Assembly: GCF_009827055.1 (NCBI RefSeq)
Contig: NZ_WUMK01000002.1
Coordinates: 62,001 to 126,000 of the forward strand
Reading direction: 5' to 3'
Length of the DNA stretch: 64,000 nt
Source of the DNA: Shinella kummerowiae
GTDB taxonomy: Bacteria; Pseudomonadota; Alphaproteobacteria; Rhizobiales; Rhizobiaceae
A program made the translations under genes and the position numbers. Position 1 is the first letter of the stretch, and each line of letters begins with the position of its first letter. Of the stretch, positions 27,799 through 37,684 are shown piece after piece. The notes beneath the pieces were generated by a model that was not told where the DNA came from, made no database searches, and saw only the letters and a program-made list of their open reading frames with translations.

Positions 27799-28767
27799 TT
27801 ACTGACGGAAGAGCTGGAGGATGTTTTCTGCGCTCGAATTGGCGATCGAGAGCGACTGGATACCCAATTGCTGCTGGGTCTGCAGTGCCTTCAACCGCGT
27901 CGATTCCTCGTTCATGTCGGCATCGACCAGGCGGCCGATGCCCTTGTCGATCACGTCGCCGAGCGAGGCGACGAAGCTTTCCTGCATCTCGATGCGCTTG
28001 GTGATGGCGCCGAGCGTGGAGGCCGCGTTCGTCAGGCCTTTGAGGATGAAATCCGTGACACTGATCATGCCATCGATTTCTTCGTAGGTCGTATCGGCCC
28101 TGAGCTGCACCACAGTGTCATCAGCGGGGTTGCCGAGATCGTCCATGTTGATGATGGAGTATGGACCGAACGCTGGCGGGTTCTCCATGACGTCGGCAAG
28201 ATCGATGGGTTTGGTGAGGTAACCCTGCTCGGGTGTTTCGATGTCGATCAGCACGGAGTTCGCGGTGTCGAAGTCGAGCGTGGTGACCTTGACGTTGCCG
28301 TCGGCGCTTCGCACGAAGGAGGCAACGACGGATTTTATGCCGAGAGCGTCGTCACCGGTATTATAAAGCCAGTTCTCGCCAGAAAAGGAGGCCGACTGAG
28401 CCGCCGAAATGAGCTGGTTCTTCAATTCGGAAATTTCGTCGTTGATCTTGGTCTTGTCGACGCCCGGCTCTCGCGCGGCGACCAGCTTGGCTTTGATCTC
28501 GCTCATCACGTCGATGACGCTTTCCAAGGAGGTATAGGCGGTATCGACCTTGGCGGCACCGAGGCCGAGCGCGTCGGCGACGGTGGAGATGGCGCGGTTG
28601 TCGGAGCGCATGGTGGTCGCGATCGACCAGTAGGCGGCGTTGTCGGCGGCGGTTTCGACGCGCATGCCGGAGGAGACACGCGCCTGCGTCGTCTCGAGGC
28701 TGTTGTCGATCGAACGGAGGGTCTGCAACGCAGCCATGGCGGCGGAGTTGGTCAAGATGCTGGTCAT
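27799..28767 (-). CDS. flaC: Flagellin (third copy)
   Basis: A 322-residue flagellin. The D0/D1 N-terminus starts MTSILTNSAAMAALQTL and contains AADNAAYWSIATTMRSD. The C-terminus has GRLVDADMNEESTRLKALQ and LGIQSLSIANSSAENILQLF. The middle is short, as in rhizobial flagellins. The start at 28767 is chosen by similarity to the other flagellins; an in-frame ATG is two codons upstream. It is split from the other two flagellins by the plus-strand cassette 29471-37684. The letter (C or D) is tentative. Confidence 0.92.
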   Translation of the reverse strand: MTSILTNSAAMAALQTLRSIDNSLETTQARVSSGMRVETAADNAAYWSIATTMRSDNRAISTVADALGLGAAKVDTAYTSLESVIDVMSEIKAKLVAAREPGVDKTKINDEISELKNQLISAAQSASFSGENWLYNTGDDALGIKSVVASFVRSADGNVKVTTLDFDTANSVLIDIETPEQGYLTKPIDLADVMENPPAFGPYSIINMDDLGNPADDTVVQLRADTTYEEIDGMISVTDFILKGLTNAASTLGAITKRIEMQESFVASLGDVIDKGIGRLVDADMNEESTRLKALQTQQQLGIQSLSIANSSAENILQLFRQ

Positions 28768-29470
28768 TGGCATTTGCCCTGAGTAAGTGATTGTCGGGGA
28801 CATGCCGGAGTGAGGCGGGGGACCGGTAACGATGGGAGGCTTCATGCAACCGACGCCGCTCGTTTGCCCTGGGCGTCAGTCCATCGTTCTTAATGATTGG
28901 TTAACGGCCAATGGTTAACAAATGGTTAACGCCGTTAAGGATTTGGAAAGGAAAATGAAAAAAGCGTAAACGAGCGATGGCAGGTTTTTACGGTTTTCAA
29001 CCTTTCCGCGACAAAACCATGACACGCCCTGCCTGTAAGTGGCACGATACCGTGCGATTTTGGCAAACGACCGTTCCGTTTCAGGTCAGGCCGCTTTTGG
29101 AATTGCAAGGATGTGTTGCATCTCATTAACGCATTATTAGAGGTTCCTGCTTAGAACTTTGCTTAGTTGTAGGACTTCTACCCGTATAGGGCCTGCAACC
29201 ACTGGCGTGGGGATCGGAGCCGCCTTCTGGCTCTGGAAGCATGATGCCCTTCCGATACGCTGGCTCGTTCGAGTCATGTTCCATGAAAACAAGTTATCGT
29301 CCGCGAGGACACCCGAATTGCGAAGCCAATGACGGGTCCGGGGGGACGTCCAACGCTGCAGCAAGCGCAGGGACATGCTGAGTATGCCGTAAAGGCGCCG
29401 AACAGGCCCTTTGCGCTGCGACTCGCAGGGCATTGACGTTTGTGGTCAGCCAACCATCAAGGGCGCGTTC
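28768..29470. promoter_or_regulatory. Divergent region between the third flagellin and the octapeptide-repeat gene
   Basis: 703 bp without a convincing gene. On the flagellin side it holds the shared leader motif GGGGACATGCCGGA (28796-28809), ACCGGT (28822-28827) and CATGC (28843-28847). Further out are three TGGTTAAC repeats (28898-28905, 28912-28919, 28923-28930). Toward the repeat gene there is a GCATGATGC (29239-29247), similar to the outer flagellin motif read in that gene's direction. Promoters were not placed. Confidence 0.5.
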
Positions 29471-32400
29471 ATGACTTCAATCGTCACATCTCTTTCGATC
29501 AACCAGATCCGGGCGCTCTCGTCGACCGCGATCGCGAACCTCACCACAACCGACGTCGCAGCTCTCACGAGCACGCAGATCAAGGCGCTGAGCTCCACGC
29601 AGATCGCGGCTTTCGAAACCGAAGACCTCGCGGCCTTCTCCTCGACCCAGATCAGCGCCGTCACCGCCGCCGCCATCACCGGCCTCACCCTTTCGCAGAT
29701 GGATGCGCTGGGCTCCACCAACATCGGCGGCCTCACCTCGGCGCAGATGAACGCGCTCAGCACGTTGCAGATCAACCAGCTGAATTCCGATCAGGTCGAT
29801 CTCCTGACGAGCACGCAGATCGCAGCCCTCAGCGCGGCCGCCCTCGGCACGATGACCTCGGACGAAATCGGCACCTTCACCTCGGATGAAGTCTCCGCCA
29901 TCTCCACCAAGGTTCTGGCAAGCCTCTCCACCGCCGCCATCGCAAACTTCAACAGCGATCAGATCGGCGCCCTCAGCACCAAGCAGGTCGCATCGCTGAC
30001 CAGCGCGCAGATCGCCGTCCTGACCTCGGACCAGATCGACGGCATGACAAGCGGCCAGGTTGCCGCTCTCACCGCCAAGCAGATCACGGCGCTCACGACC
30101 GATGCCGTCGCATCGCTCGACAGCGACCAGATCGGCGCCCTGAACGCCAAGCAGATCGCAGCCTTCTCGACCGCACAGGTCGCCATCCTCGACTCCGACC
30201 AGGTTGCCGCTCTGAGCAGCACCCAGATCGCAGCGCTGAGCGCCGACGCACTCGGCACGATGACCTCGGAAGAAATTGCAACCTTCTCCTCCGATGAGAT
30301 TGCAGCCATCTCCACCAAGGTTCTTTCGAGCCTCTCGACGGCGACCATCGCAAACCTCGACAGCGACAAGATCGCTGCCCTGACTTCCAAGCAGGTCGCG
30401 GCTCTCACCAACGCCCAGATCGGCGTCCTGACGTCGGATCAGATCGACGGCCTGTCTTCCGACAACGTCGCCGCGCTGACCGCCAAGCAGATCACGGCGC
30501 TCACGACCGACGCGCTGGTATCGTTCGACAGCGACCAGATCGCTGCCCTGACGGCCAAGCAGGTCGCTGCCCTCTCCTCTGCCCAGGTCGACGTCCTGAC
30601 CTCCGACCAGATCGACGCCCTCGACAGCGTCCAGATCGCGGCCCTCAGCGCAGCGGCACTCGGCACGATGTCCTCCGACGAGATCGCGACCTTCACGTCT
30701 GACGAAGTCGCCGCAATCAGCACGAAGGTCCTGTCGGCCCTCTCGACCGCCACGATCGCAAACTTCGACAGCGCACAGATCGGCGCCCTGAACAGCAAGC
30801 AGATCGCCGCCCTCACCACCGCCCAGATCGGCGTTCTCACCTCCGATCAGCTCGACGGCCTGTCCTCCGACAACATCGTTGCCCTGACCGCCAAGCAGAT
30901 CACGGCGCTCACGACTGATGCCGTCGCATCGCTCGAAAGCGACCAGGTGGCTGCCCTGACGGCCAAGCAGGTGGCTGCAATGACGACCGGCCAGGTCGAC
31001 GCCCTGACCTCCGATCAGGTTCAGGCCCTGACCAGCACGCAGATCGCGGCCCTCGGTGCCGTGGCGCTCGACACGATGTCCTCCGACGAGATCGCGACCT
31101 TCACATCTGACGAAGTCGCCGCCATCTCCACGAAGGTGCTGTCCAGCCTGTCCACCGCAACGATCGCAAACTTCGACAGCGACAAGATCGCAGCCCTGAC
31201 GTCGAAGCAGGTTGCTGCCCTCACCAACGCCCAGCTCGGTGTTCTGACCTCCGATCAGCTGGACGGCCTGTCGACCGACAACATCATTGCCCTGACCGCC
31301 AAGCAGATCACGGCGATCACGACCGATGCCATCGCATCGCTCGAAAGCGACCAGATCGCAGCCCTGACGTCGAAGCAGGTCGCAGCCCTGAGCTCCGCCC
31401 AGGTCGACGCACTGACCTCCGACCAGGTCCAGGCTCTGAGCAGCACGCAGATCGCAGCCCTCAGCGCCGCAGCGCTGAACACGATGTCCTCCGACGAGAT
31501 CGCGACCTTCACGTCCGATGAAGTCGCAGCCATCTCGACCAAGGTTCTGTCTGCCCTTTCGACCGCTGCCATCGCCAACCTCGACAGCGACAAGATTGCC
31601 GCTCTCAGCAGCAAGCAGGTTGCAGCCCTGACCGCAGCCCAGATCGGCGTCCTGACGTCCGATCAGGTCGATGGTCTGACCAGCAACAACATCGTCGCCC
31701 TGACGGCCAAGCAGATCGAAGCGCTCACGACCGACGCAATCTCGTCGCTCGACAGCGACCAGATCGCCGCCCTCACGGCCAAGCAGGTTGCATCCTTCAC
31801 CTCTGCTCAGATCGACTCGCTGAACTCCGACCAGGTCGAAGCTCTCGACAGCGACCAGATCGCCGTCCTCAGCGCCGCGGCACTCGGCACGATGACCTCC
31901 GAAGAACTGGGTAAGTTCACCTCTGATGAAATCGCCGCCATCAGCACCAAGGTCTTGGCCGCTCTGTCCACCGCTGCCATCGGGAACTTCGCCAGCGATC
32001 AGATCGCAGCCCTGAGCTCTGCCCAGGTTGCCGCTCTGACCACTGCGCAGGTCGCAACCCTGACCTCCGATCAGCTCGACGGTCTCAGCTCCGACGTGAT
32101 CACGGCCCTCACTGCCACCCAGGTCGCAGTTCTGACCACTGATGCGATCGCATCGCTGGAAAGTGACCAGGTCGCAGCCCTGACCTCCAAGCAGGTTGCC
32201 GCCCTGACCACCGCGCAGGTCGCAACCCTGACGTCGGACCAGGTCGACGCCCTGACGAGCACGCAGATCGCAGCCCTCAGCGCCGCAGCGCTCGGCACGA
32301 TGAGCTCTGACGAGATCGGTACCTTCTCGTCTGACGAAGTCGCCGCCATCAGCACCAAGGTTCTGGCCGGCCTGTCGACCGACATCGTGTCCTTCCTCAG

Positions 32401-32902
32401 CAGCGAACAGATCAGCGCCCTGAGCACCGGCCAGCTTGCCTCGCTGACAACGGCACAGATCGGCGTCCTCTCCTCCGACCAGGTTGACGGTCTGACCTCC
32501 GACAACATCGTCGCCCTGACGGCCAAGCAGATCGAAGCGCTCACGACCGACGCCATCTCGTCGCTCGACAGCGACCAGGTCGCAGCCCTGACGAGCACGC
32601 AGATCGCAGCCCTCAGCACGGCCCAGGTCGCAACGCTCACCTCCGACCAGGTCGAGGCTCTGACGAGCACGCAGATCGCGGCGCTCAGCTCTGCCGCACT
32701 CGATGCGCTGGCTTCGGACGAGATCGCGACCTTCACGTCGGACGAGATCGCCGCAATCAACGTCAAGGCACTGCCGGGCCTCTCCACCGAGGACATCGGT
32801 GCCCTGAGCTCGGAACAGGCGCGGGCCTTCACCAGCCAGCAGATCGGCGCGCTGAACAGCTCGCAGGTCGAAGCGATCATCGCAGCCTACAACGACGTCT
32901 GA
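29471..32902 (+). CDS. Giant octapeptide-repeat protein, unknown function
   Basis: A 1143-residue protein. Residues 1-9 are followed by 141 back-to-back octads with no insertion or deletion, then a six-residue tail (AAYNDV). The octad consensus is [STA]-[DKTA]-[QE]-[IV]-x-[AG]-[LFIM]-[TSDN]. From residue 122 the octads form a 17-octad super-repeat (136 residues, 408 bp), seen as seven full copies plus a partial one; landmark octad AALGTM[TS] recurs every 408 bp. No Cys, Trp or His is seen; Tyr and Pro occur once, near the C-terminus. There is no Sec signal or membrane segment, but the N-terminus MTSIVTS resembles flagellin MTSILTN. ATG at 29471; 60 bp of upstream open frame has no repeat. I do not recognise a named family. 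Confidence 0.85.
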   Translation: MTSIVTSLSINQIRALSSTAIANLTTTDVAALTSTQIKALSSTQIAAFETEDLAAFSSTQISAVTAAAITGLTLSQMDALGSTNIGGLTSAQMNALSTLQINQLNSDQVDLLTSTQIAALSAAALGTMTSDEIGTFTSDEVSAISTKVLASLSTAAIANFNSDQIGALSTKQVASLTSAQIAVLTSDQIDGMTSGQVAALTAKQITALTTDAVASLDSDQIGALNAKQIAAFSTAQVAILDSDQVAALSSTQIAALSADALGTMTSEEIATFSSDEIAAISTKVLSSLSTATIANLDSDKIAALTSKQVAALTNAQIGVLTSDQIDGLSSDNVAALTAKQITALTTDALVSFDSDQIAALTAKQVAALSSAQVDVLTSDQIDALDSVQIAALSAAALGTMSSDEIATFTSDEVAAISTKVLSALSTATIANFDSAQIGALNSKQIAALTTAQIGVLTSDQLDGLSSDNIVALTAKQITALTTDAVASLESDQVAALTAKQVAAMTTGQVDALTSDQVQALTSTQIAALGAVALDTMSSDEIATFTSDEVAAISTKVLSSLSTATIANFDSDKIAALTSKQVAALTNAQLGVLTSDQLDGLSTDNIIALTAKQITAITTDAIASLESDQIAALTSKQVAALSSAQVDALTSDQVQALSSTQIAALSAAALNTMSSDEIATFTSDEVAAISTKVLSALSTAAIANLDSDKIAALSSKQVAALTAAQIGVLTSDQVDGLTSNNIVALTAKQIEALTTDAISSLDSDQIAALTAKQVASFTSAQIDSLNSDQVEALDSDQIAVLSAAALGTMTSEELGKFTSDEIAAISTKVLAALSTAAIGNFASDQIAALSSAQVAALTTAQVATLTSDQLDGLSSDVITALTATQVAVLTTDAIASLESDQVAALTSKQVAALTTAQVATLTSDQVDALTSTQIAALSAAALGTMSSDEIGTFSSDEVAAISTKVLAGLSTDIVSFLSSEQISALSTGQLASLTTAQIGVLSSDQVDGLTSDNIVALTAKQIEALTTDAISSLDSDQVAALTSTQIAALSTAQVATLTSDQVEALTSTQIAALSSAALDALASDEIATFTSDEIAAINVKALPGLSTEDIGALSSEQARAFTSQQIGALNSSQVEAIIAAYNDV
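29846..32740 (+). repeat. 408-bp tandem super-repeat inside the octapeptide-repeat gene
   Basis: The landmark codons for GTM[ST]SDE (or DALASDE in the last) begin at 29846, 30254, 30662, 31070, 31478, 31886, 32294 and 32702, each exactly 408 bp apart. Copies are clearly diverged at third positions, so this is an old expansion kept in frame. Middle copies (30662, 31070, 31478) are closest to each other. Confidence 0.92.
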
Positions 32903-32927
32903 TCCGGACGATCGATCCCGAAAACTG

Positions 32928-32959
32928 GCGGCGCGGTTCTTACCGCGCCGCTTTTCTTT
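32928..32959 (+). terminator. Terminator of the octapeptide-repeat gene
   Basis: Ten-bp stem GCGGCGCGGT (32928-32937) / ACCGCGCCGC (32942-32951), loop TCTT, followed by TTTTCTTTT. A textbook intrinsic terminator 25 bp after the stop. It suggests that the glycosyltransferase genes downstream have their own promoter. Confidence 0.88.
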
Positions 32960-33110
32960 TGGGCATGGGGCACACGAACCCGCACCCCACGCCATCCCCG
33001 CCGCGAAAAACGATCAGCCCGACGCAAGACAACTCCGATAGCAAGGCAAACGAGCTCCTTTGCGAGTCGTTCAACAGCCCGGCCAGCAGGCCACTTGCCG
33101 CAGGATGTCC

Positions 33111-35156
33111 ATGACCGTCAGCACCCCCATCGTTCCTGATCCGAACGCACCGCTCCTCAACCTGCTTGGGCGCGCCCGCAACCAGCAGCTTTCGCTCGCC
33201 GAGCTGTTCCAGACCGCGGAAGCCCTTGCCGCTGGCGGCGCCACCCTGCCGGCCATCGAGCTCTACAAGACCTGGATCGCCTTCAACGACACCAATCCGC
33301 TGCTGCATCTCGCCTATTTCAATTTCGCGGTATCGCTTTCCAAGGCGGGGGACACCGCCGCGACGATCCACGCCCTGCGCGCGGCGATCCGGATGAGCCC
33401 GCAGTTCGGCCAGGCCCATATCAATCTCGGGCGGACGCTGGAGGATTGCGGCCTGACGGGGCAGGCCGTCCAGCAATGGCGCACCTTTGCGGATGCGACG
33501 GCGGACATTACGCCCGACAAGATCAACAACCGTCTGCTGAGCCTCCAGCATATCGGCCGTGTTCTGGAAGCAACCGGCAATCTCGAAGAGGCGGAAGCCG
33601 CCCTCTGGCAGGCCATGGAGCTGCAGCCCTCGCGTACCGAGGCCGCCCAGCACTGGATTTCGCTTCGTATGCGCCAGTGCAAATGGCCGGTCGTCGCGCC
33701 GTCGACCCACATCACCTCGCGGCAGTTCATGGACGCGATGTCCTCCATGACGATCGCCTGCTACACGGATGATCCCCTCTTTCACATGGCCAAGGCGCAC
33801 CGCTACTGCCAGGCGACCGTCGGCCGACCGGCCGATCTCAAGGCTTTCGTGCGCAAGCCCGTGCGCCACAAGAGCGGAACCGGCCAGCGCCTGCGCGTCG
33901 GTTACGTTTCCTCCGACCTGCGCCAGCATGCCGTTGGTTTTGCGCTGAGCGAGCTGCTCGAACTGCACGACAAGTCCAATGTCGAGGTCTTCGCATACTA
34001 TTGCGGCGAGCCGGTCGTGCTCGACCAGACGCAGGCGCGCATCAAGCTTGCGGTCGATCATTGGTGCGACATTACCAAGTTGAGTGACATCGACGCGGCC
34101 CGGCAGATCGTCGCCGACGAGATCGACGTGCTGATCGACGTCAATGGCTATACCAAACACGCCCGCACGAAAATCTTCGCCTATCGCCCGGCCCCGGTGA
34201 TCGTGAATTTCTGCGGCTATCCCGGAACGATGGCCAGCCCGTATCACCAGTACATGATCGCCGACGACCAGATCGTGCCGCCGGAAAATGAGCTGTATTA
34301 TACCGAGAAGGTGCTTCGCATCCCCTGCAATCAGCCGGTGGACCGCAAGCGCACCGTCAACCCGCGCCCGACCCGGGCGGCGGTCGGCCTGCCGGAAGAC
34401 GCCTTCGTCTTCGCAAGCTTCAACGGCATGCAGAAGATCACCGCCAACTGCTTTGCCCGCTGGATGGCCATCCTCACCGCCACGCCGGGCAGCGTGCTGT
34501 GGCTGCTGGTCGGCGATGACAGCGTCAACGAGCGCGTCAAACAGATGGCAGAACAGGCGGGCGTCGCGCCGGAGCGGCTGATCTTTGCCGGCAAGACCCA
34601 GAACCCGGATCATCTCGCCCGCATCGGCCTTGCCGACCTGTTCCTCGACACCTTCCCCTATGGCGCGCATTCTACCGCCGCCGACGCCATCACCCAGGGT
34701 CTGCCGGTGCTGACCGTCGCGGGCAAGAGTTTCGCCTCGCGCTTCTGCGCCAGCATCGTCGTGGCGGCCGGCATTCCCGAACTCGTCTGCAAGAGCCCGG
34801 ACGACTACGTGCACCAGGCGGTCGCCTTCGCGAAGGATCCGGCGCGTCTTGCCGCGGTCAAGGCTTCGCTCCTGCAGCAACGGGAAACCTGCGCGCTGCG
34901 CGACATGCCGGCCCTTGCCCGCCGGCTCGAAGAATTGTTCTGGCAGATGCAGGGCGAAGCGGAGCGTGGCGAGACGCCCGTGCCGGACCTGCGCAACCTC
35001 GACCTCTACTACGAGGTGGGTGCCGAGCTTGCAGCCGCGAATATCGATTTCGAAGACGACGAGGCCTACAGGCAGCGCTACCGCGCGCAGCTTTCCATCC
35101 TGAACGACTTCGCACCACTTTCACCCGACGCTCGCCTCTGGACCGCTGCCGTATAA
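33111..35156 (+). CDS. O-GlcNAc-transferase-like (SPINDLY/GT41) glycosyltransferase with TPR repeats
   Basis: A 681-residue cytosolic protein. Residues about 30-200 form TPR helices (LLHLAYFNFAVSLSKAGD, FGQAHINLGRTLEDCG). The C-terminal GT41 catalytic domain shows RVGYVSSDLRQHAVGFALSE, IVNFCGYPGTMASPYHQYMI, FASFNGMQKITA and FLDTFPYGAHSTAADAITQG followed by LPVLTVAG. Such enzymes add sugar to Ser/Thr of proteins; in several bacteria they glycosylate flagellin or adhesins. Candidate targets here are the flagellins and the Ser/Thr-rich octad protein. ATG 33111 or 33105; both are weakly supported. Confidence 0.87.
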   Translation: MTVSTPIVPDPNAPLLNLLGRARNQQLSLAELFQTAEALAAGGATLPAIELYKTWIAFNDTNPLLHLAYFNFAVSLSKAGDTAATIHALRAAIRMSPQFGQAHINLGRTLEDCGLTGQAVQQWRTFADATADITPDKINNRLLSLQHIGRVLEATGNLEEAEAALWQAMELQPSRTEAAQHWISLRMRQCKWPVVAPSTHITSRQFMDAMSSMTIACYTDDPLFHMAKAHRYCQATVGRPADLKAFVRKPVRHKSGTGQRLRVGYVSSDLRQHAVGFALSELLELHDKSNVEVFAYYCGEPVVLDQTQARIKLAVDHWCDITKLSDIDAARQIVADEIDVLIDVNGYTKHARTKIFAYRPAPVIVNFCGYPGTMASPYHQYMIADDQIVPPENELYYTEKVLRIPCNQPVDRKRTVNPRPTRAAVGLPEDAFVFASFNGMQKITANCFARWMAILTATPGSVLWLLVGDDSVNERVKQMAEQAGVAPERLIFAGKTQNPDHLARIGLADLFLDTFPYGAHSTAADAITQGLPVLTVAGKSFASRFCASIVVAAGIPELVCKSPDDYVHQAVAFAKDPARLAAVKASLLQQRETCALRDMPALARRLEELFWQMQGEAERGETPVPDLRNLDLYYEVGAELAAANIDFEDDEAYRQRYRAQLSILNDFAPLSPDARLWTAAV

Positions 35157-35212: not shown

Positions 35213-36496
35213 ATGACCCCAGTTATCCTGGTGACCTTTGCCGGACGGCAGAAACGGATGGAAATCCTGACCCAATACGTCCGACGGGCGTTGGATCTCG
35301 GGATCATCGACGAGTGGCATATCTGGGATTTCACCCGCGCGGACGACGACTACGCCTGGGTGACCCGGGAATTCGGCCCTGCCCGCTATATGGGCTCGAA
35401 GGTGCCGTATCAGACAGCAGGGACCGTCACGCCGCAGGCCTCCTTCCGCACGAGCGCACGGATCCGTCACGACCTGCACATCGCGATCGTTCCGAACGAT
35501 CGGTCGCAGGAGTGCTACGAGATCGTGGTCGGCGGCTGGAAAAACACCCATTCGGCGCTGCGCAAGATCACGCGCGACCAGCTGCAGAATTTCGACCGGG
35601 ACAACCAGGCCAATCTCTGGATCAAGCCGACGCCGGGCGCCCTGTCTCCGGGACAGCCCAATGAGGTCGTGCTGATGCTCGATTCGGCGGGCGTGCCGAC
35701 GCTGCGCATCAACGATGCGACGATCGGCACCTGGCCGGAGCTGAACCTTGGCGCCGGCGCGTCGGTTCTCATTCGCGGCGGCTGGGGCGCCGATCTGGAA
35801 CTCTGCGACGTCAATGCCCGGACCCGGCGCTATATCGGCAATCCGCGCGAGCAGCTGCCCTATTTCCAGGCCTACGAATATTACGCGACACGGATCGACG
35901 CCTTCGCCGACGCCGTCTTCCTGAAGTGCGACGATGACATCGTCTATCTCGACATCGACAAGCTGGATGGCTTCATCCAGTTCCGCCGTGCCAATCCGCA
36001 CTACTTCGTCGTGTCGGCAAACGTCGTGAACAATGGGGTATGCGCCTACTTCCAGCAGCAGGCGGGTTCCATTCCGGCAAGTGTCGGCGATTTCGAAAGG
36101 CCGCCGGGCGGTTTTGGCGGCTCTCTCTGGGAGAGCGCGGAACGCGCGACGCAGTTGCATGCCTTCTTCCTTAGCACCGGCGGCGCGGCGTTGCCCCTCC
36201 CCGAGCCCGTCGTCGACTGGACCGAACGGCAGTCGATCAACTTCATCGCCTGGCTGGGGCGCGACCTGCGCCACATGGCGCTGCCGCAGGGCGATGACGA
36301 ACACGCCCTCACCATCGGCGTGCCGACCTTCCTGGAGCGGCCGTCCGCGATCTATTCCGACTTCATGGTGAGCCATCTGAGCTTTGGCCCGCAGGAGCGC
36401 GGCTGGGATCCAACCGCGCTGATCGAAGCCTACGAAGTCTTGATGCGCGACCGGCTGTTTCCGGCAGATGCACCACGGCTGCGGGCCGCAGGCTGA
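35213..36496 (+). CDS. Glycosyltransferase-like protein with an embedded PF12248-like domain
   Basis: A 427-residue cytosolic protein. The N-terminus (PVILVTFAGRQKRMEILTQYV) and the segment KCDDDIVYLDIDKLDGF (about residue 240) look like a GT-A glycosyltransferase with an Asp-rich metal motif. Residues about 75-195 form an inserted module with YEIVVGGWKNTHSALRK, resembling the farnesoic-acid O-methyltransferase-named PF12248 domain, now thought to be a beta-sandwich ligand-binding module. The sugar and acceptor are unknown. It lies 56 bp after the GT41 gene with GAGGACAG before the ATG, so it is probably co-transcribed with it and glf. Confidence 0.65.
   Translation: MTPVILVTFAGRQKRMEILTQYVRRALDLGIIDEWHIWDFTRADDDYAWVTREFGPARYMGSKVPYQTAGTVTPQASFRTSARIRHDLHIAIVPNDRSQECYEIVVGGWKNTHSALRKITRDQLQNFDRDNQANLWIKPTPGALSPGQPNEVVLMLDSAGVPTLRINDATIGTWPELNLGAGASVLIRGGWGADLELCDVNARTRRYIGNPREQLPYFQAYEYYATRIDAFADAVFLKCDDDIVYLDIDKLDGFIQFRRANPHYFVVSANVVNNGVCAYFQQQAGSIPASVGDFERPPGGFGGSLWESAERATQLHAFFLSTGGAALPLPEPVVDWTERQSINFIAWLGRDLRHMALPQGDDEHALTIGVPTFLERPSAIYSDFMVSHLSFGPQERGWDPTALIEAYEVLMRDRLFPADAPRLRAAG

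Positions 36497-37684
<1,188 letters not shown>

What the first reader, a model, noticed from the sequence alone, without database searches (positions are those of the whole stretch)
29471..32902. A 1143-residue protein made of 141 uninterrupted octapeptide repeats inside the flagellin cluster
Read by hand, residues 10-1137 divide into 141 consecutive eight-residue units with no indel. Each has a hydrophobic residue at positions 4 and 7, Gln/Glu/Asp at 3 and Ser/Thr/Asp/Asn at 8 and 1. The S/T-x-[QE] start of each octad looks like a helix N-cap box, so short capped helices in a solenoid are one possible fold; a beta-solenoid is another. I know no named family with this pattern. Lack of Cys, Trp and His and near-absence of Pro and Tyr suggests an extended extracellular structure.
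Basis: partly seen in the sequence, partly recalled or inferred. Interest (0 to 1): 0.85.

Follow-up and report, generated by a model that had tools for sequence, protein, structure and literature searches.

The report
Octapeptide helix-screw protein with linked glycosyltransferase
A bacterial protein built only of eight-residue repeats, each predicted to fold as one tiny helix, sits beside a gene for a sugar-attaching enzyme that accompanies such proteins in many related bacteria, which suggests a sugar-coated surface fibre.

Summary
In detail: the 1143-residue protein is Met, 142 gapless octads and AAYNDV, and it is translated (dN/dS 0.10-0.27). The repeat is not unnamed: it is Pfam PF20080, ALTTAQ repeat (E 3e-232), and a solved chain, 9zem 'HeliScrew4', matches in register (E 5e-27).

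The new part is next door: a TPR-GT41 (OGT-like) glycosyltransferase and UDP-galactopyranose mutase (glf). Of 80 loci holding this GT41, 75 have an ALTTAQ ORF in the held flank, 71 glf, 14 flagellin. In 199 family genomes it occurs in 17 of 26 with ALTTAQ and 0 of 173 without. Four of seven such loci outside the family also hold type I secretion genes.

Best reading: an alpha-solenoid O-glycosylated in the cytoplasm by its own GT41, probably at octad position 1, then exported, probably by type I secretion. The flagellin neighbourhood looks mostly genus-specific. Glycosylation, export and surface location are inferred.

The parts
29471..32902 (+). ALTTAQ octapeptide-repeat protein, 1143 aa: Met + 142 octads + AAYNDV
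29498..32761 (+). eight consecutive 136-residue (408-bp) super-repeat units of 17 octads
   Evidence: laid out; 70% identity at lag 136; aligned; one unit (30314-30721) modelled at pLDDT 95.2
32864..32899 (+). C-terminal end QVEAIIAAYNDV, a motif shared by many ALTTAQ proteins whatever their length
   Evidence: [AGS][YF] within the last 12 residues in 74 of 103 distinct closed C-termini, some of the 103 being wrong-frame ORFs
32927..32952 (+). terminator-like stem-loop with T-run just after the repeat gene
   Evidence: 2 such sites found in the region, 2.9 expected by chance, so weak
33111..35156 (+). TPR + glycosyltransferase family 41 (OGT/SPINDLY-like) protein; the ORF opens at TTG 33060, the start is probably ATG 33105 or 33111
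   Evidence: PF13844 E 6.5e-71; OGT 110 kDa subunit E 3e-74, XcOGT E 1.5e-67; start codons; first invariant Met of the alignment at residue 18
35213..36496 (+). 427-aa protein with a PF12248 stretch, role unknown; relative found in 40 of 80 GT41 loci
36527..37684 (+). glf, UDP-galactopyranose mutase; relative found in 71 of 80 GT41 loci
   Evidence: PF03275 E 7e-80; TIGR00031 314.5 bits, cut-off 303.75
27799..28845 (-). flagellin upstream (neighbour, not thought to be part of the system)
   Evidence: PF00669, PF00700
38989..39912 (-). second flagellin beyond glf (neighbour)
   Evidence: PF00669, PF00700

Best explanation
The protein is a pure ALTTAQ (PF20080) alpha-solenoid, a long screw of about 142 five-residue helices, and the substrate of the TPR-GT41 glycosyltransferase encoded next to it. 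Shown here: the repeat architecture, the predicted helix per octad, and the tight genetic linkage of this GT41 and glf with ALTTAQ genes across genera of the family and, in part, beyond it. Inferred: GT41 O-glycosylates Ser/Thr in the cytoplasm, most likely at octad position 1 (first residue of each helix), while position 8 is kept as structural helix cap; glf supplies UDP-galactofuranose as donor or for later extension; the chain is exported by a type I secretion system (linked in four distant relatives, not linked here) and forms a sugar-coated extended surface or matrix fibre, for example in adhesion.
For: Family: PF20080 E 3e-232; 9zem E 5e-27 in register. Fold: pLDDT 87.6 but pTM 0.48 over 1143 residues; pLDDT 95.2, pTM 0.87 for 136 residues. 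Linkage: of the 80 loci kept (best of 316) with the GT41 profile, 75 hold an ALTTAQ ORF in the held flank of at most 10 kb, within 1000 bp of GT41 in 73 of the 75 and in both orientations (34 upstream same strand, 37 upstream divergent, 4 downstream); glf in 71 and flagellin in 14 of 80. Of the five without, the genomes of L115, L119, L121 and L123 were searched and all four have ALTTAQ; that of L134 was not. Presence: 199 family genomes, GT41 orthologue (at least 950 bits, next best 346) in 17 of 26 ALTTAQ+ and 0 of 173 ALTTAQ- (Fisher p 2e-18, not corrected for descent; two of the 17 contain one in-frame stop). The 30 genomes with only divergent GT41s include 2 ALTTAQ+. Beyond the family: GT41 near ALTTAQ in L219, L223, L228/L229, L246, L247, L249, L255; type I secretion genes too in L223, L246, L247, L249. 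Composition: Ser/Thr at position 1 in 88% of octads of 60 GT41-adjacent ORFs against 58% in 35 non-adjacent ORFs (p 4e-13), position 8 75% against 76%; within genomes 13 of 14 pairs agree (p 0.013). H290, K459, H537 and D542 of the GT41, which I place from memory at OGT active-site positions, are invariant in 17 sequences.
Against: No glycan, enzyme activity or secretion was measured. Nine of 26 ALTTAQ+ family genomes lack this GT41, so the repeat does not need it. In two of the 20 genomes of the genus that have this GT41 (G003, G020) it and glf sit with flagellin and no ALTTAQ is adjacent, and FlmG, a TPR glycosyltransferase, acts on flagellin, so flagellin could be a substrate. In G001, G008 and G019 the adjacent repeat ORF is short and weakly matching (281-311 bits). 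No type I exporter is linked in the window; HlyD plus ABC relatives were seen in 1 of 80 loci (L170), by a search with only one query pair. The position-1 signal fails in G008 and is absent in G243, while G034 has 59%; the adjacent and non-adjacent sets also differ in Pro (0.4 against 1.8%) and total Ser/Thr (26 against 22%), some of the 35 are pieces of one gene, and relatedness is not corrected. Five of ten ALTTAQ+ genomes outside the family that I examined showed no GT41 in the stretch read.
Confidence: 0.62

Rival explanations
1. The GT41-glf pair glycosylates flagellin, as FlmG does in Caulobacter, and the repeat protein is a bystander or a second substrate.
For: Flagellin lies near the cassette in 19 of the 20 genomes of the genus that have this GT41; G003 and G020 have GT41 and glf with flagellin but no adjacent ALTTAQ; FlmG has a TPR domain and a GT-B-like domain (PMC7591256, passages).
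Against: Flagellin in the held flank of 14 of 80 GT41 loci, ALTTAQ in 75 of 80; G016 and Rhizobium sp. CCGE531 have GT41, glf and ALTTAQ with no flagellin in the stretch read; 0 of 173 ALTTAQ-free family genomes carry this GT41, although flagella were not surveyed there; G003 and G020 have ALTTAQ elsewhere.
Confidence: 0.17
2. The repeat protein is exported through the flagellar type III apparatus and decorates or accompanies the filament; its start MTSIVTSLS resembles the flagellin start MTSILTN.
For: Position in the cluster; MTSIITNL and MTSIVTNL starts in some orthologues; the window flagellin holds MTSILTN; in G243 another ALTTAQ gene lies near flhB and fliR.
Against: Similar starts occur in ALTTAQ proteins with no flagellin in the stretch read (MTSIVPSLS, MTSIVSSL) and the start is itself an octad; four distant loci carry type I secretion genes instead.
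Confidence: 0.1
3. An intracellular scaffold, never exported; the GT41 modifies it in the cytoplasm as OGT does in eukaryotes.
For: No Sec-type signal that I can see in the N-terminus (sequence; no predictor was run); no linked exporter in most family loci tested.
Against: Type I secretion genes near 4 of 7 GT41-ALTTAQ loci outside the family; acidic (pI 4.05), Cys-free, repeat-only composition, common in secreted fibres (general knowledge); a C-terminal motif kept whatever the length.
Confidence: 0.13

Closest known systems
Pfam PF20080, ALTTAQ repeat
   Same: Same octad; 42 stretches pass on their own, E 3e-232. This protein is a member.
PDB 9zem, HeliScrew4
   Same: 104-106 residues align without gaps in the same register.
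   Different: 120 residues, Pro mostly at position 1 where this protein has Ser/Thr (alignment). I could not read its title, origin or coordinates; it is not among the 50 rows shown of either Foldseek search (copy to April 2026).
FlmG, flagellin O-glycosyltransferase of Caulobacter crescentus
   Same: Soluble TPR plus glycosyltransferase protein that acts before export (PMC7591256, passages).
   Different: Its substrate is flagellin and its donor pseudaminic acid; here the linked partner is an ALTTAQ protein and the linked sugar gene is glf. No sequence comparison with FlmG was run.
HMW1C/HMW1, AIDA-I/Aah and serine-rich-repeat adhesin systems (recalled)
   Same: A dedicated cytoplasmic glycosyltransferase encoded with a repetitive exported adhesin; an HMW1C-like enzyme matches this GT41 weakly (E 4e-4).
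   Different: Different substrate folds and exporters; not tested here.
Mesothelin (PDB 8cx3)
   Same: Best Foldseek row for the 136-residue model; a superhelix of short helices (recalled).
   Different: E 1.4e-3, TM-score 0.41: too weak to claim a shared fold.

Membership tests
PF20080 ALTTAQ repeat | Profile score over the curated cut-off | tested here: met
   750.4 bits against 26.4
PF20080 ALTTAQ repeat | Tandem, gapless octads | tested here: met
   142 of 142 in register
HeliScrew-type fold (9zem) | Sequence match in register | tested here: met
   E 4.9e-27, unit positions 19-124
HeliScrew-type fold (9zem) | Structural superposition | not testable with these tools
   9zem not among the Foldseek rows shown; pdb_via not available
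GT41 (PF13844), for the neighbouring enzyme | Profile score, TPR plus catalytic domain | tested here: met
   239.7 bits against 25, TPR hits
GT41 (PF13844), for the neighbouring enzyme | OGT active-site residues kept | tested here: inconclusive
   H290, K459, H537, D542 invariant in 17 sequences; that these are the OGT active-site positions rests partly on the alignment and partly on memory
Glycosylated type I secreted adhesin | Linked type I exporter | tested here: inconclusive
   4 of 7 loci outside the family, HlyD plus ABC in 1 of 80 family loci, none near the window gene
Glycosylated type I secreted adhesin | Glycan on the protein; surface location | not testable with these tools
   needs experiment
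Lanmodulin / EF-hand | Curated cut-off; Ca2+ loop (DxDxDG, recalled) | tested here: not met
   Lanmodulin 40.6 bits against 135. EF-hand_11 passes its cut-off (49.7 against 21.7) only as a sum, no stretch passing alone. No DxDxDG seen in the octads printed
RTX protein | Glycine-rich nonapeptide repeats | tested here: not met
   36 Gly in 1143 residues, period 8; no RTX family among the 11 Pfam hits

The most novel reading that the evidence does not exclude
ALTTAQ proteins that travel with GT41 are O-glycosylated helical-screw fibres. One hydroxyl per octad (position 8) caps the helix and its neighbour (position 1) carries the sugar. A dedicated TPR-GT41, itself a superhelix, reads a screw whose surface repeats every 3.4 octads (17 octads = 5 turns), so that sugars line up as a periodic glycan stripe before type I export. 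This would be a modular glycoprotein fibre whose sugar changes with the linked sugar-nucleotide gene (glf here, a gene annotated UDP-glucuronic acid decarboxylase in Pseudoroseomonas).
Probability: 0.3. Interest if true: 0.85.

Novelty: new variant of a known kind. Interest (0 to 1): 0.6.

Why it matters
If true, it gives a functional hypothesis to a named repeat family for which my searches found no description, and a natural enzyme-substrate pair for bacterial GT41 enzymes other than flagellin glycosylation. The substrate is essentially one octad repeated 142 times, so acceptor rules could be read from short peptides or a HeliScrew-like fragment. A simple periodic helical scaffold with a cognate glycosyltransferase would also be useful for building glycoprotein materials.

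Tried and rejected
Beta-solenoid: both models are all-helical. Lanmodulin, EF-hand, LRR and other secondary hits: taken as pattern matches of a repetitive query. Fold searches of the full model against PDB and viral models: TM-scores below 0.3 in the 50 rows shown of each, taken as uninformative. Chance or an untranslated frame: rejected. Flagellar export from the MTSI start: weakened, because the start is itself an octad and similar starts occur away from flagellin. A strict rule of 12 consecutive octads gave ALTTAQ in 54 of 80 loci; a profile of four octads, built from the six orthologues of A3, gave 75 of 80, and I use the latter. Papers, seen as search listings only: ALTTAQ and HeliScrew (0 papers each), octapeptide or eight-residue solenoids, Shinella/octapeptide/GT41, O-GlcNAc transferase with type I secretion and adhesin (0 papers), GT41/adhesin/type I secretion (12 of 104 listed), heme utilization protein/type I secretion (10 of 112 listed). 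None of the titles listed describes this family or pair; the library holds open-licence PMC papers only, so this is not proof of absence in print. PMC2275737 (passages): PrsDE substrates of Rhizobium leguminosarum; 'octapeptide' does not occur in its text.
Full report
WHAT IS THERE. The ORF at 29471-32902 (+) encodes 1143 residues. Position 4 is I/V/L/M/A and position 7 L/F/I/M/V in 142 of 142 octads, against at most 33 in 1000 shuffles. Ser or Thr stands at position 1 in 117 and at position 8 in 115 of 142 octads. Sequence is 70% identical at lag 136, i.e. 17 octads. Six orthologues give dN/dS 0.10-0.27 in 15 of 15 pairs, so the frame is translated.

FAMILY AND FOLD. It is a member of Pfam PF20080, ALTTAQ repeat: 750 bits, 42 stretches. 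By sequence, PDB 9zem 'HeliScrew4' matches a profile of the 136-residue unit at E 5e-27 without gaps. AlphaFold gives one helix of about five residues per octad: mean pLDDT 87.6 with pTM 0.48 for the whole chain, so its overall curvature is uncertain; pLDDT 95.2 and pTM 0.87 for one unit, with 40 aligned repeat units as input. The helix starts near position 1, with position 8 as N-cap and position 3 at N3. Foldseek found no PDB chain with E below 0.001 for the unit; the best row is mesothelin, TM-score 0.41.

A LONG-RANGE PERIOD. A Fourier scan over octad index in 103 ALTTAQ ORFs (many of them close relatives) found 86 with z above 4 against shuffled octad order; the commonest dominant periods are 3.4 octads (32 of 86), 8.5-8.6 (23) and 2.4 (13). 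These equal 17/5, 17/2 and 17/7, and arithmetically the last two are aliased harmonics of 3.4. A screw with 3.4 octads (27 residues) per turn would explain why 17 octads, five turns, is the unit in this family. Orthologue lengths of 1007, 1143, 1279, 1415 and 1551, and 1687 in Rhizobium sp. CCGE531, are 136 apart; a group of three at 1359 and several shorter ones do not fit. Pseudomonas (5.5), Pseudoroseomonas and two other loci (2.0) show other periods. The turn number is inference, since I had no coordinates.

THE NEIGHBOURS. Downstream lie a TPR-GT41 protein (33060/33111-35156), a 427-residue protein with a PF12248 stretch, and glf, UDP-galactopyranose mutase. The GT41 matches the OGT 110 kDa subunit (E 3e-74) and XcOGT (E 1.5e-67). 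Of the 21 genomes of the genus (Shinella, inferred from named contigs of equal length), 20 have this GT41, all 20 with glf; ALTTAQ is beside it in 18 and flagellin nearby in 19. The exceptions: G003 and G020 have GT41 and glf with flagellin but no adjacent ALTTAQ, though ALTTAQ elsewhere; G016 has the cassette with no flagellin in the stretch; G006 lacks this GT41 and ALTTAQ, and no glf was found in the stretch read. In G001, G008 and G019 the adjacent repeat ORF is short (720-726 aa) and weakly matching.

WHOSE ENZYME IS IT? A profile search in genome contigs kept 80 loci of 316. An ALTTAQ ORF is in the held flank in 75, glf in 71, flagellin in 14; several loci are cut by contig ends, so these are lower bounds. 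ALTTAQ lies within 1000 bp of GT41 in 73 of those 75 and in both orientations. Of the five without, L123 and L134 have less than 550 bp before the gene; the genomes of L115, L119, L121 and L123 contain ALTTAQ; the genome of L134 was not searched. In 199 family genomes the GT41 orthologue (at least 950 bits; next best 346) occurs in 17, all ALTTAQ+; 9 ALTTAQ+ genomes lack it; none of 173 ALTTAQ- genomes has it. Two of the 17 hold an in-frame stop (G436, G381). Around ALTTAQ genes of eight of the nine genomes without it, no GT41 was found in the stretches read (G465 was not read). So this GT41 goes with ALTTAQ, but ALTTAQ can do without it. Loci and genomes are related by descent and the p-values are not corrected for that.

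OUTSIDE THE FAMILY. Surveys found ALTTAQ in 5 of 240 genomes drawn from the class and 16 of 398 from the phylum, the window's own genome included in both. I examined ten ALTTAQ+ genomes outside the family: G034, all four, and five of the 14. GT41 lay near an ALTTAQ gene in five: G034, G215, G243, G794, G812; it was not seen in the stretches read of G080, G181, G528, G563, G574. Two more came from a GT41 search of plasmids, so by selection: Pseudomonas asturiensis and Pseudoroseomonas cervicalis. Distances differ: immediately adjacent in G034, G243, G794, G812 and P. asturiensis; about 4-5 kb, with the secretion genes between, in G215 and Pseudoroseomonas. Four of these seven loci (G215, G812 and the two plasmids) hold HlyD and ABC type I secretion genes, with an outer-membrane channel in two. 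In Pseudoroseomonas a gene annotated UDP-glucuronic acid decarboxylase lies beside GT41 and no glf is annotated in the stretch.

WHICH HYDROXYL? In 60 GT41-adjacent ALTTAQ ORFs Ser/Thr fills position 1 in 88% of octads, against 58% in 35 non-adjacent ORFs (p 4e-13); position 8 does not differ (75 against 76%, p 0.08). Only ORFs of 500 residues or more were taken; three adjacent ones with fewer than 40 usable octads were dropped; ORFs 1.5-2.5 kb from GT41, and those of G243 (L219/L220), G215 (L223), G034 and G023 (L227) near a GT41, were left out; some of the 35 are pieces of one gene. The two sets also differ in Pro and in total Ser/Thr. Within 14 genomes the adjacent protein is higher at position 1 in 13 (Wilcoxon p 0.013; exception G008, with only 37 octads) and lower at position 8 in 12 (p 0.02). 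G215 fits strongly (95% against 31%); G243 does not (65 and 69% against 72 and 56%); G034 has 59% with no comparison.

MECHANISM. Shown: repeat, fold prediction, linkage, composition bias. Inferred: GT41 binds the nascent or folded screw in the cytoplasm and glycosylates position 1; glf supplies galactofuranose; export follows a type I route, for which the conserved C-terminus may be the signal; the result is a glycosylated extended surface or matrix protein. In this genome no exporter is linked.

VERDICT. The GT41 partnership, reaching beyond the family, is, as far as the searches go, not described, and it is directly testable.

Noticed in passing
window 29471-32902 and 103 ALTTAQ ORFs: Dominant octad periods 17/5, 17/2 and 17/7 in most family ALTTAQ ORFs tested, consistent with 3.4 octads per superhelical turn.
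   Followed up: partly
G000:C37:376519-383178 (L033:10457-17179, -): A second ALTTAQ protein of 2240 residues in the same genome, starting MTSVVSSLSIS; the genome's only match to this GT41 at E 1e-40 is the one in the window.
   Followed up: partly
window 35213-36496 (+): A 427-aa protein with a PF12248 stretch lies between GT41 and glf; a relative is found in 40 of 80 GT41 loci. Role unknown.
   Followed up: no
Mycobacterium phage Squirty gene 51 (H21) and phrog_15773: Phage proteins that match the octad repeat.
   Followed up: no
L222 (G243): A very long ALTTAQ gene (ORF of 3232 aa) lies beside a histidine kinase, flhB and fliR.
   Followed up: no
G528, G563, G574 (L250-L252): Genomes of one other family with ALTTAQ ORFs of up to about 5700 residues; no GT41 in the stretches read, and a period of 2.0 octads in the two ORFs tested.
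   Followed up: partly
window 29477-32995 (-): A 1172-aa antisense ORF open along the whole repeat gene; probably a by-product of the codon pattern of the sense repeat, whose third positions vary most.
   Followed up: partly
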